IMG/VR virus record: IMGVR_UViG_3300030104_002003
Span: 1 to 27,586 of that record
Direction: 5' to 3' (one strand)
Length of the DNA stretch: 27,586 bases
Source: a virus
Both the position numbers and the translations under genes were made by a program. The notes under the pieces are model-generated. The model ran no database searches and was not told where the DNA came from. It saw only the letters and a list, made by a program, of their open reading frames with translations. Every line of letters starts with the position of its first letter. Positions within the stretch are counted from its first letter, which is position 1. This document shows positions 12,862 to 15,383 of the stretch, piece by piece.

Positions 12862-13380
12862 GTGGCGGTAGCGGAAATCATGGCGATTATCTCAACCGTC
12901 AATGCGGCAAGCGCAGCAATAAACAAAGTCGCAGGAACGTGCAACGACCTTAGTACGATTGGTACATTTGTAGGAAAGTTAGGTCAAGCCCAAGTAGATA
13001 TTCAAGCGTATCAGAACAAACACAGAAACAACCTGTCTCAGGAAGAATTAATCCAGATAACTCTGGCAAAGAAACAATATCAAGACAGAATGAATGAAAT
13101 CCGTGAGTTATTTATTTATTCTGGGAATGCTCATCTCTGGGATGAGATTCAAATGGAAATGGCAAATGCGAGGAAAAGACGCATTGCTGAGATGAGAGCT
13201 AAAGAAGCTGCCAGAAAGAAAGCAATAAGCATTACGATCTGGGCTGGCTTTATACTTATTGTTGCCCTAGCGGTATTTTTAGCCATGCTGTATGCAATAT
13301 CCACGTATGCAGAACCGCTGATCACTAATACTGACCTGTCAACAGTATTGCTTTTGCTGGGAGGTTTACCATTATGGTGA
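12862..13380 (+). CDS. Coiled-coil membrane protein of the lysis region
   Basis: The GTG start is chosen because AGGAG at 12849-12853 lies 8 nt upstream; the next in-frame ATG (12880) is too far from it. The 172-residue product has an Ala-rich N-terminus, a long charged helix (residues about 45-120, ending with alternating Arg/Lys/Glu such as RKRRIAEMRAKEAARKK), a transmembrane segment at about 121-146 (ISITIWAGFILIVALAVFLA) and a hydrophobic C-terminal end (STVLLLLGGLPLW). It resembles an accessory membrane protein or antiholin-like regulator more than a classical holin. It overlaps the next gene by 7 nt. Confidence 0.7.
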   Translation: MAVAEIMAIISTVNAASAAINKVAGTCNDLSTIGTFVGKLGQAQVDIQAYQNKHRNNLSQEELIQITLAKKQYQDRMNEIRELFIYSGNAHLWDEIQMEMANARKRRIAEMRAKEAARKKAISITIWAGFILIVALAVFLAMLYAISTYAEPLITNTDLSTVLLLLGGLPLW

Positions 13381-13592: not shown

Positions 13593-13970
13593 ATGAATAT
13601 ATTGAGCGCAGTTCTTGGGCCAGTCACTAATTTGGCTGGCACATGGATGAAGAATAAACATGAGCAGTCTCAGGCTAAACATCAGGCTAAGATGACGGTG
13701 ATACAGAATGATGCAAACTGGGAAGACAAGATGGCTTCAGCGTCTGGAACAAGCTGGAAAGACGAGTTCTGGACGCTTGTACTCTCTGTCCCTATCTTTA
13801 TGGTTGGGTACGCTGTGGCTTTTGATGATATTGCTGTCATGGATAGGGTTCACGCTGGTTTTGATGCTCTATCTAATCTTCCTGATTGGTATCAATACCT
13901 ACTCTTTATTGCGGTCTCAGCTAGTTTCGGCATTCGCGGAGCGGATAAACTGATGAAGTTACGCAAGTGA
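13593..13970 (+). CDS. Holin of the GTA_holin_3TM type
   Basis: At 125 residues, it has an N-terminal amphipathic and charged helix (LSAVLGPVTNLAGTWMKNKHEQ), a WEDKMASAS linker, then SWKDEFWTLVLSVPIFMVGY (membrane segment about 53-76), and finally LPDWYQYLLFIAVSASFG (second membrane segment about 95-113) ending IRGADKLMKL. The WKDEFWT ... P-WYQYLL ... ASFGIRG order is characteristic of the 3TM holin family known from gene transfer agents and marine phages. Holins permeabilise the inner membrane at a set time so that the endolysin (15033-15383) can reach the wall. Its stop overlaps the GTG start of the next membrane gene. Confidence 0.85.
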   Translation: MNILSAVLGPVTNLAGTWMKNKHEQSQAKHQAKMTVIQNDANWEDKMASASGTSWKDEFWTLVLSVPIFMVGYAVAFDDIAVMDRVHAGFDALSNLPDWYQYLLFIAVSASFGIRGADKLMKLRK

Positions 13971-14167
13971 GTCCCGAAGAGTTTGACAAATGGCGAGTGT
14001 TTCCAAGATTGTTAGTGTTGGTAATGGCAATAGCCACATGGGATGTAATACACTGGTTTATGAGTATTCAAGACCCCACGTTTGAACAGGCTGGTTTGGT
14101 TTCCGTAGTTACTGGGGCAATGACGGCAGTATTTGGATTATTCTTAGGACAAGGGAAGAAAGAGTAA
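13967..14167 (+). CDS. Small two-helix membrane protein, possible holin partner
   Basis: The GTG start overlaps the holin stop (GTGA), giving 66 residues. After a short acidic-basic start (SPEEFDKWRVFPR) there is one hydrophobic helix (LLVLVMAIATWDVIHWFM) and a second (GLVSVVTGAMTAVFGLFLG), ending GQGKKE. The two helices with a short QDPTFEQA loop are a common partner next to 3TM holins in marine phages. It could be a second pore former or an antiholin. GTG start and coupling predict expression linked to the holin. TAATG leads to the next gene. Confidence 0.7.
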   Translation: MSPEEFDKWRVFPRLLVLVMAIATWDVIHWFMSIQDPTFEQAGLVSVVTGAMTAVFGLFLGQGKKE

Positions 14168-14373
14168 TGGCAAAAGCAAAGGCAAAACCAAAGAAGAAAG
14201 CTAAATCTAAAGTTAATGAGGCAGGTAATTACACCAAGCCTACTTTAAGAAAGAGATTGTTTAGCAGAATTAAGTCAGGCACTAAGGGTGGAAAGGCTGG
14301 TCAATGGTCAGCTAGGAAAGCCCAGATGCTTGCTTCAGCGTACAAGAAAGCTGGTGGAGGATATAAAGACTAA
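14167..14373 (+). CDS. Lys-rich small protein (conserved in marine phages)
   Basis: The 68-residue product begins with a Lys/Ala tail (AKAKAKPKKKAKSK), then GNYTKPTLRKRLFSRIKSG and TKGGKAGQWSARKAQMLASA, ending KKAGGGYKD. The GNYTKP...KGGxxGQWSARKAQ...AYKKAGGGYK pattern is a conserved unknown family that I recall from marine phages and some bacteria. It is strongly basic and has no membrane segment. It opens a chain of four basic genes joined by TAATG stops and starts between the holins and the endolysin. Nucleic acid binding is suspected from charge only. Confidence 0.75.
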   Translation: MAKAKAKPKKKAKSKVNEAGNYTKPTLRKRLFSRIKSGTKGGKAGQWSARKAQMLASAYKKAGGGYKD

Positions 14374-14492
14374 TGGCAGAATTAACTTCAGCGCAAAAGC
14401 GCAAAATGATTTCTCAACTTAAAAAAGCATCTCAGATGCACTCGGCCCAAGCCAAGGCTATTGAAAAGACGTTGCCAAAGAAGAAAAAGTAA
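14373..14492 (+). CDS. 39-residue basic microprotein
   Basis: This very short gene is flanked on both sides by TAATG stop/start overlaps. The product starts MAELTSAQKRKMISQLKKAS, then HSAQAKAIEKT and a PKKKK end: one amphipathic helix with a Lys tail. Its place inside an unbroken coupled chain and its regular codon pattern support real translation. I recall near-identical microproteins in other marine phages. The function is unknown; it could be a DNA-binding or chaperone-like helix. Confidence 0.7.
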   Translation: MAELTSAQKRKMISQLKKASQMHSAQAKAIEKTLPKKKK

Positions 14493-14746
14493 TGGCTCTC
14501 AAGAAGTCGCAAAAGTCCCTTAAAAAGTGGACAAAACAGAAATGGCGTACAAAGAGTGGCAAACCCTCTACTCAAGGCTCAAAAGCCACTGGAGAACGCT
14601 ACCTGCCTGAAAAAGCTATTAAATCCATGTCTTCTAAAGAGTATGCAGCTACCACCAAAAAGAAAAGAGCAGACACTAAGAAAGGCAAGCAACATTCATC
14701 ACAGCCTAAAAAAATAGCTAAGAAAACAGCGAGGCATCGAAAATAA
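14492..14746 (+). CDS. Conserved 84-residue Lys-rich protein
   Basis: The protein begins with LKKSQKSLKKWTKQKWRTKSG and contains ERYLPEKAIKSMSSKEYAAT, then a basic tail KKIAKKTARHRK. The order KSLKxWTKQKWxTKSGK ... GERYLPxxAI ... SxxEYAAT is, from memory, well conserved in marine phage and environmental sequences. It shows no Cys and no membrane segment. Being tied to neighbours by TAATG overlaps, it belongs to the basic-protein cassette of this lysis region. No function is known to me. Confidence 0.75.
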   Translation: MALKKSQKSLKKWTKQKWRTKSGKPSTQGSKATGERYLPEKAIKSMSSKEYAATTKKKRADTKKGKQHSSQPKKIAKKTARHRK

Positions 14747-15039
14747 TGCGAGCATATTATAAGAAAGGTGGTCGTGTAGATAAGGGTGCAATGTCTTGCA
14801 ACAAGCCTAAAAGAACGCCTAGTCATGCCAAGAAGTCGCATGTGGTTAAAGCCTGTGAAGGCGGTAAAGAAAAAGTTATCAGGTTTGGTGAGCAAGGAGC
14901 AAGCACGGCTGGTAAGCCTAAGAAAGGCGAGTCTGCTAGGATGAAAGCTAAACGTAAAAGCTTTAAAGCAAGACATAGAAAGAATATAAAGAAAGGTAAG
15001 ATGTCAGCGGCATATTGGGCAAATCGTACCAAATGGTAG
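14746..15039 (+). CDS. Conserved 97-residue basic protein with RFGxQG motif
   Basis: It starts MRAYYKKGGRVDKGAMSC, then KSHVVKACEGGKEKVIRFGE, GKPKKGESARMKAKRKSFKA and a RHRKNIKKGKMSAAYWANR ending. The KACxGGKEKVIRFGxQG ... SFKARHRxNI ... KMSAAYWANRxKW pattern is conserved across many marine phages and some bacteria in my memory. Two Cys (18 and 37) may be structural. It carries strong positive charge and no membrane helix. Its 3' end overlaps the endolysin start by 7 nt, so the endolysin is translated in coupling with this gene. Confidence 0.75.
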   Translation: MRAYYKKGGRVDKGAMSCNKPKRTPSHAKKSHVVKACEGGKEKVIRFGEQGASTAGKPKKGESARMKAKRKSFKARHRKNIKKGKMSAAYWANRTKW

Positions 15040-15383
15040 AGTTTAAGTATTTTTCAAGAGATGAGTTTAAGTGTTCTGAAACAGGTAATAATCAAATTCA
15101 GGACGAGTTTATTCATGCTCTTGACAAGTTAAGAGAAAGCTGTGGTTTTCCTTTTGCAATTACGTCTGGCTATCGAGATCCTTCTCACAGCGTTGAAGCC
15201 AAGAAAGAAAAGGCTGGGCAGCACACTTTAGGTATTGCTGCTGATATAGCGGTTGCTGGAGGCGCACAACGCTTTATGATTGTATCCAAGGCTCTAGAGC
15301 TTGGGTTTTCTGGAATCGGAGTGGCTAAGACGTTTGTCCATGTGGATACAAGAACAACCGACCCAATGTTATGGTGTTACTAA
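15033..15383 (+). CDS. Endolysin, M15-family peptidase (VanY/DacB-like)
   Basis: The ATG at 15033 is chosen (116 residues) over an upstream TTG at 15015 because it gives the 7-nt overlap usual for this cluster. The motifs are those of Peptidase_M15_3: ITSGYRDPSH near 43-52, zinc ligands His64 and Asp71 in QHTLGIAADI, and His103 in FVHVD. M15 enzymes cleave D-Ala or L-Ala-D-Glu links in peptidoglycan, so this is the likely wall-degrading lysis enzyme. There is no signal peptide, so access to the periplasm should depend on the holin genes at 13593-14167. The length is typical for a single-domain phage M15 endolysin. Confidence 0.88.
   Translation: MVEFKYFSRDEFKCSETGNNQIQDEFIHALDKLRESCGFPFAITSGYRDPSHSVEAKKEKAGQHTLGIAADIAVAGGAQRFMIVSKALELGFSGIGVAKTFVHVDTRTTDPMLWCY

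What the first reader, a model, noticed from the sequence alone, without database searches (positions are those of the whole stretch)
14167..15039. Cassette of four tiny Lys-rich proteins wedged between holin and endolysin
Four consecutive coupled genes (68, 39, 84 and 97 residues) all give strongly basic products. Three have well-marked conserved motifs (GQWSARKAQ, GERYLPEKAI, VIRFGEQG). Lysis genes normally sit side by side, so insertion of a nucleic-acid-binding-like cassette here hints at a shared task: DNA condensation, host nucleoid or ribosome targeting, or membrane disruption by cationic peptides.
Basis: partly seen in the sequence, partly recalled or inferred. Interest (0 to 1): 0.55.

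Follow-up and report, generated by a model that had tools for sequence, protein, structure and literature searches.

The report
Split basic DUF5872-like phage protein cassette
Four tiny, strongly positively charged phage proteins sit in one operon; two of them look like the separated halves of a little-studied protein that bacteria and algal giant viruses also encode, and they probably bind DNA or RNA while new virus particles are made rather than help burst the cell.

Summary
In detail: four tightly coupled genes (68, 39, 84, 97 aa) encode very basic proteins without hydrophobic segments, between holin-like genes and an M15 endolysin. The lysis setting looks incidental. In the window's nearest relatives the fixed unit is the 68-84 pair: among loci with 3 kb of flank, 32 of 32 found by p68 have p84 nearby and 28 of 28 found by p84 have p68. 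Named recurrent neighbours are adaptor, terminase, capsid and portal genes on the same strand; an annotated lysin is within 2 kb in 7 of 20 isolate records viewed. p68 and p84 are fused in some phages, and lie in one ORF in 78 of 80 bacterial/archaeal loci. Those fused proteins match Pfam DUF5872, so p68 and p84 are most simply its two halves; the window halves and fused phage forms stay below the Pfam cut-off. p97 is a separate family (phrog_7595), fused to p84 in four contigs. Phage copies carry about three times the charge density of bacterial ones. Best reading: nucleic-acid-binding proteins acting on phage DNA during head assembly. That they bind, are late, and are in the virion is inference. 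No relative of solved structure and no study of function was found.

The parts
14167..14373 (+). p68: 68-aa basic protein (+19), phrog_17747; corresponds to the N-terminal half of DUF5872-type proteins
14373..14492 (+). p39: 39-aa basic protein (+9); similar segments are fused N-terminally to p68 in L018 and L211
   Evidence: best family hit phrog_9364 at E=0.06, none in Pfam or NCBIfam
14492..14746 (+). p84: 84-aa basic protein (+25), phrog_14910; corresponds to the C-terminal half of DUF5872-type proteins
14746..15039 (+). p97: 97-aa basic protein (+26), phrog_7595; predicted beta-hairpin plus two helices
13593..13970 (+). holin-like 125-aa ORF (phrog_2524, unknown function; GTA_holin_3TM only E=0.17)
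   Evidence: same PHROG near the cassette in a cluster of 31 viral loci
13967..14167 (+). holin-like 66-aa ORF with two hydrophobic stretches (phrog_10198), GTG start, one-base overlap with p68
15033..15383 (+). endolysin, M15 peptidase, 7-base overlap with p97

Best explanation
A set of tiny cationic proteins, coded among the late genes, that bind nucleic acid, most likely the phage's own DNA while heads are assembled and filled. p68 and p84 are the two halves of a DUF5872-type protein encoded as neighbouring genes; p97 and p39 are further basic modules of the same kit. SHOWN: coupling, charge, absence of hydrophobic segments, conserved pairing of p68 and p84, fusions among modules, position on the strand of head/packaging genes, relation to a one-chain bacterial protein, higher charge than in bacteria. 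INFERRED: late expression (from position), nucleic-acid binding, DNA rather than RNA as the target, presence in the head, a role in compacting or neutralising packaged DNA.
For: p68-p84 pairing 32/32 and 28/28 loci with 3 kb flanks; p68 upstream of p84 on the same strand in 188/188 loci holding both (nine contigs are in the set under two locus ids). Nine phage ORFs hold p68+p84, four hold p84+p97; 78 of 80 GTDB loci have both halves in one ORF. Fused phage forms align to DUF5872 nearly end to end, below cut-off; NCBI names an Azospirillum relative DUF5872. Foldseek pairs the fused model with the CeV-01B DUF5872 protein, TM 0.54-0.56, E=0.045. Named recurrent neighbours: SU10-type adaptor, TerL, MCP, TerS, portal, all same strand. 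Sub-threshold Rho_N in 5 of 6 bacterial relatives. Median charge per residue of the p84 domain: phage split 0.27, phage fused 0.27, bacterial 0.08; 32 phage rows above 50% GC 0.28.
Against: No binding or virion-proteome data were found and two likely sources are not held. No significant PDB relative by sequence or fold. The Pfam DUF5872 model does not match HMO-2011 or the Hodr record at E<=1. p97 has p68/p84 within 3 kb in only 16 of 30 loci, so the four are not an obligate unit. Distance correlations are low for p68-p84 (0.24) and negative for p84-p97 (-0.17), though loci were picked by similarity to one or the other, which biases this. p84 is fused to a tape-measure-like segment in L108 and L109, which would fit a tail role. 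Bacterial loci are GC-rich (median 0.69) and phage loci not (0.42), so part of the charge gap may be composition: p68 charge falls with GC (r=-0.40), p84 hardly (r=-0.11).
Confidence: 0.4

Rival explanations
1. Host takeover late in infection: the proteins bind host DNA, RNA or ribosomes (compacting the nucleoid, altering transcription or translation) and are not packaged.
For: Charge and Rho_N-type relatives fit any nucleic acid. The two annotated bacterial neighbourhoods viewed do not look like prophages: transport/catabolism genes in Azospirillum, UdgX and a DNA-repair radical SAM gene near by in Phaeobacter.
Against: Position among head, packaging and lysis genes suggests late expression; takeover genes are usually early (general knowledge).
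Confidence: 0.27
2. Head-assembly accessory or connector proteins that contact the capsid, adaptor or portal; charge contacts structural protein rather than nucleic acid.
For: Frequent neighbours are SU10-type adaptor, portal, MCP and terminase; p84 fused to a tape-measure-like segment in L108/L109; distances of p97, p84 and p68 correlate with those of MCP (0.54, 0.44, 0.35 on 31, 40, 40 loci; permutation maxima 0.36, 0.30, 0.27), less with TerL (0.14, 0.20, 0.14; maxima 0.29, 0.17, 0.22).
Against: Position is not fixed relative to any one head gene; DUF5872 relatives occur in bacterial genomes and plasmids.
Confidence: 0.18
3. Lysis factors: cationic peptides that disturb the membrane or help holin and endolysin.
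For: Place in the window between holin-like genes and endolysin; annotated lysin within 2 kb in 7 of 20 isolate records viewed; phrog_2524 cluster near the cassette in 31 loci and a lysozyme-like cluster in 20.
Against: No hydrophobic segment; no annotated lysin within 2 kb in 13 of 20 records (some annotate none in the stretch); relatives in bacteria.
Confidence: 0.06
4. Dispensable, mobile small genes tolerated in late operons without a common task.
For: p97 has no p68/p84 within 3 kb in 14 of 30 loci; its order relative to the pair varies.
Against: Purifying selection, invariant p68-p84 pairing, repeated fusion or splitting.
Confidence: 0.05

Closest known systems
Pfam DUF5872 (PF19197): bacteria, uncultured tailed phages, algal giant viruses
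   Same: Fused phage forms align to positions 2-110 of 116; Foldseek pairs the fused model with the CeV-01B member
   Different: Here split into two genes; neither the halves nor the fused phage forms reach Pfam's cut-off; far more basic
PHROGs phrog_17747, phrog_14910, phrog_7595
   Same: Nearly full-length matches at E=6e-33, 8e-37, 3e-38
   Different: PHROGs lists them as unknown function, as three separate families
Bacterial DUF5872 + Rho_N-like proteins (Sphingomonas, Methylobacterium, Stutzerimonas and others)
   Same: Both halves in order in one chain
   Different: Extra Rho_N-like C-terminus, sometimes DUF3140 fused or near by; lower charge
T4-type internal head proteins and protamine-like condensing proteins (recalled, no call)
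   Same: Small, basic, proposed DNA-associated role
   Different: No sequence link looked for or found beyond the family searches; packaging not shown

Membership tests
DUF5872 (PF19197) | Match above Pfam gathering score (27.5 bits) | tested here: not met
   Window halves: no hit at E<=1, none in the window record. Fused phage forms 12.5-18.9 bits. HMO-2011 and Hodr: no match. Bacterial relatives: over the cut-off in 4 of 11 records searched, two of them only with neighbouring matches added; hmmscan gave 24.7-25.7 bits for three, 17.0 for one and nothing for L262, which one search scored 27.8, so the score is fragile
DUF5872 (PF19197) | Both halves in one polypeptide | tested here: not met
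   Separate genes p68 and p84 in the window with p39 between; met in 9 phage ORFs and in 78 of 80 GTDB loci
DUF5872 (PF19197) | Homology of each half to proteins that are themselves DUF5872 | tested here: met
   In the 78 fused ORFs the p68 profile scores E=1.6e-24 to 9.3e-12 and the p84 profile 5.5e-35 to 1.1e-21
DUF5872 (PF19197) | Shared fold | tested here: inconclusive
   CeV-01B DUF5872: TM 0.54-0.56, E=0.045; a phage DUF5872 protein E=8. Only a fused relative was modelled, not the window halves
PHROGs 17747 / 14910 / 7595 | Profile match over most of the profile | tested here: met
Holin-endolysin lysis cassette | Membrane segment and constant linkage to lysis genes | tested here: not met
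   Highest 15-residue mean hydropathy 0.01; annotated lysin within 2 kb in 7 of 20 records
Phage internal head / DNA-condensing proteins | Presence in purified virions and DNA binding | not testable with these tools
   needs MS and binding assays

The most novel reading that the evidence does not exclude
A modular kit of histone-like proteins: tailed phages of marine bacteria split and re-fuse a DUF5872 protein that bacteria and algal giant viruses also carry, recharge it to about +0.27 per residue, and package it with p97 to compact the genome in the head.
Probability: 0.25. Interest if true: 0.65.

Novelty: new variant of a known kind. Interest (0 to 1): 0.42.

Why it matters
Where the isolate records listed there annotate the gene, it is 'hypothetical protein'. 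Recognising two of the families as halves of one domain turns several unknowns into one testable question that reaches into bacteria and giant viruses.

Tried and rejected
Rejected: lysis role (no hydrophobic segment, variable neighbours); membrane-active peptide; holin partner. Tried without result: PDB sequence searches with three profiles (best E 0.48, 0.19, 0.34); PDB fold searches (no match at E<=10 for the fused model; best E=2.5 for p97; no VIA-align match with Z>=2); NCBIfam; literature on virion proteomes and on the family numbers. A mirror-tree test was uninformative for the cassette genes because loci were chosen by similarity to one of them. Bacterial neighbourhoods within 4 kb gave no constant partner: DUF3140 in 13 of 76 loci, a UvrD-type helicase ORF in 15 of 76 (four metagenome-bin loci were left out beforehand). 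A p97 profile found nothing in 190 genomes of the class of G001, without a positive control; the DUF5872 profile found 2 of 190, one being the centre genome itself, so the bacterial gene is patchy. The tree of p84 domains (169 rows after redundancy removal, 79 columns, 70 of 166 inner branches open) puts 58 proteobacterial rows in one supported clade among phage rows; the root is unknown, so the direction of transfer is not decided. Some hits of the p68 model were not p68 (a p39-like stretch in L018; L083) and were left out of A4. In some searches metagenome-bin loci L239, L276, L298 and L301 were counted with phages, so one of the nine 'phage fused' rows is L239 and L053 is not among them. 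Alignments used part of what was at hand: A5 54 of the 58 non-redundant fused rows plus L047; A7 71 of 104 non-redundant p97 rows plus the whole window protein (the list held its trimmed form); A2 42 rows plus the window, out of 56.

Full report
OBSERVATION. The four ORFs exist at the stated coordinates and lengths. From the 66-aa holin-like gene to p97 each stop and start share one base (TAATG), and the endolysin ATG at 15033 overlaps the end of p97. Net charges are +19, +9, +25, +26; none of 27 other listed window ORFs exceeds 0.095 per residue against 0.23-0.30 here. Among 1709 ORFs of 90 aa or more found mechanically near the cassette in 231 viral loci, 4.4% reach 0.20. Close homologues differ mostly at synonymous sites, so p68, p84 and p97 are under purifying selection; the 39-aa ORF has the weakest support.

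FAMILIES. The four window proteins have no Pfam or NCBIfam hit at E<=1 but p68, p84 and p97 match phrog_17747, phrog_14910 and phrog_7595, all of unknown function. In 50,697 phage records, tblastn at E<=1e-5 finds p97 in 49, p84 in 14 and p68 in 17.

THE PAIR. Loci were assigned to the query that first brought them in: 75 by p68, 76 by p84, 80 by p97. Of these 32, 28 and 30 have 3 kb of sequence on both sides. p84 is within 3 kb on the same strand in 32 of 32, p68 in 28 of 28, and p97-seeded loci have both in 16 of 30. p68 precedes p84 on the same strand in 188 of 188 loci holding both, with a median of 8 bases between the matched domains; nine contigs enter under two locus ids. Loci were the top matches to the window, so this describes its relatives, not all phages. 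Nine ORFs carry p68 and p84 in one frame (one, L053, is cut by a contig end) and four carry p84 and p97. A p39-like stretch precedes p68 in one frame in L018 and L211. The HMO-2011 p68 ORF and others carry another tiny module in front of p68.

DUF5872. A fused phage protein used as query found 406 relatives among 464 candidate stretches in GTDB genomes; 80 were kept, and in 78 of these both halves lie in one ORF. The two others, L276 and L298, are metagenome-bin contigs with separate p68, p84 and p97, like the phages. Pfam's DUF5872 model spans both halves in fused phage proteins, below its cut-off (12.5-18.9 of 27.5 bits). It is over the cut-off in 4 of 11 records searched (three bacterial genomes and an Azospirillum plasmid), some over only the first 70-84 positions, and finds nothing in HMO-2011 or Hodr; of 14 control genomes Caulobacter vibrioides alone rings, below the cut-off. 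hmmscan of the same protein of L262 gave no hit where one search scored 27.8, so the score is fragile. NCBI calls an Azospirillum relative DUF5872. DUF5872 is listed for the giant virus CpV-BQ1 (PMC12085832, one passage seen). I therefore read p68 and p84 as the two halves of a DUF5872-type protein; they are not formal members. On the p84 tree fused and split phage forms interleave (the fused label needs at least 3 changes by starred branches, one of its six rows being the bin contig L239), so splitting or fusion probably happened more than once; few columns make this tentative.

STRUCTURE. AlphaFold2 gives the fused relative L047 a mean pLDDT of 91.9 but pTM 0.60, with helices in both halves, so the halves' relative placement is uncertain; p97 gets 81.4, pTM 0.69, a hairpin plus two helices. 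The separate window halves were not modelled. Foldseek finds no PDB match at E<=10 for the fused model and none significant for p97; the viral library returns mostly unnamed or uncharacterised proteins and the CeV-01B DUF5872 protein. No coordinates were available to map charge or contacts.

CONTEXT. Of the 1709 neighbours, 1472 share the cassette's strand. Among the recurrent clusters that got a name are SU10-type adaptor (62 loci), tail fibre-like (54), TerL (53), MCP (48), a second adaptor/virion structural cluster (45), TerS (35), portal (29) and a lysozyme-like cluster (20); the window's own phrog_2524 and phrog_32327 families form clusters of 31 and 30 loci. All twelve clusters checked for strand, two of them of unknown function and not named here, are wholly same-strand. 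Other clusters, some as frequent (45 and 41 loci), match only unknown families or none and were not checked for strand. In 20 isolate records that I chose from the hit lists an annotated lysin lies within 2 kb of a cassette member in 7 (CRP-1, HMO-2011, S-EIVl, CRP-9, S-CRES1, HTVC106P, CRP-810); CRP-5 has a putative lytic transglycosylase at 1.5 kb, not counted; several annotate no lysin in the stretch, so 7 is a lower bound. In MEP402 p84 is next to TerL, in KBS-S-2A p97 lies between minor head and coat genes. The order holin-like, p68, p39, p84, p97, endolysin was seen only in the window itself, with profiles that detect only relatives of its own lysis genes.

MECHANISM. Strong charge, lack of hydrophobic segments, position among late genes and bacterial relatives with sub-threshold Rho_N tails point to nucleic-acid binding. 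Phage copies keep the DUF5872-type motifs but carry about three times the charge density (medians 0.27 against 0.08 for p84, 0.25 against 0.09 for p68). Among phage loci p84 charge hardly depends on GC (r=-0.11; 0.28 in 32 rows above 50% GC) while p68 does somewhat (r=-0.40; 0.25 in 29 rows). Bacterial loci are richer in GC than most phage loci (medians 0.69 and 0.42), so composition is not fully excluded, but selection for charge is the simpler reading, as expected if they act on crowded DNA in heads. This last step is inference, and a host-directed or purely structural role is not excluded.

LITERATURE. DUF5872 occurs in one held paper, DUF3140 in none and the three PHROG numbers in none; one paper was listed for PF19197 but a search of its main text shows it nowhere. 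Of PMC9038755 I read passages and section 17: HMO-2011-type core genes include several of no known function, and lysis genes were detected in the structural and packaging modules. Of PMC12753301 I read the abstract and section 12, which says in general that late phage clusters hold virion morphogenesis and lysis; I saw nothing there on these genes.

Noticed in passing
L108:5559-6518, L109:1055-2014: p84 fused to a stretch matching DUF6496 just under its cut-off (L109, E=1.8e-4) and a segment matching tape-measure PHROGs (L109, E=1.5e-8).
   Followed up: partly
L041:595-1359: p97 fused to a ~170-aa N-terminal domain (phrog_32745, unknown function, E=5.5e-6).
   Followed up: partly
L234:6258-6614, L107, L183, L120, L132, L167: Another tiny module (MPLT...VFYA..NKG) stands alone or is fused in front of p68; by pattern in 9 of 232 records (window plus L002-L232), 0 in reversed proteins.
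   Followed up: partly
L246:7989-8861, L240:3943-4299: Bacterial DUF5872-type gene fused to, or near, DUF3140; neighbour in 13 of 76 loci.
   Followed up: partly
window 12862-13380 and 13593-13970: Their PHROGs, phrog_32327 and phrog_2524, recur near the cassette in clusters of 30 and 31 viral loci; both of unknown function.
   Followed up: partly
L276, L298, L239: Contigs in bacterial or archaeal bins carry phage-like forms; L276 and L298 have p68, p84 and p97 as separate genes and look like viral contigs in a bin.
   Followed up: no
L325 (OQ414635.1): Record named phage EXVC031P Hodr carries locus tags 'EXVC032PBaldr', possibly a labelling slip; its DUF5872-like gene matches both halves of the fused query.
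   Followed up: no
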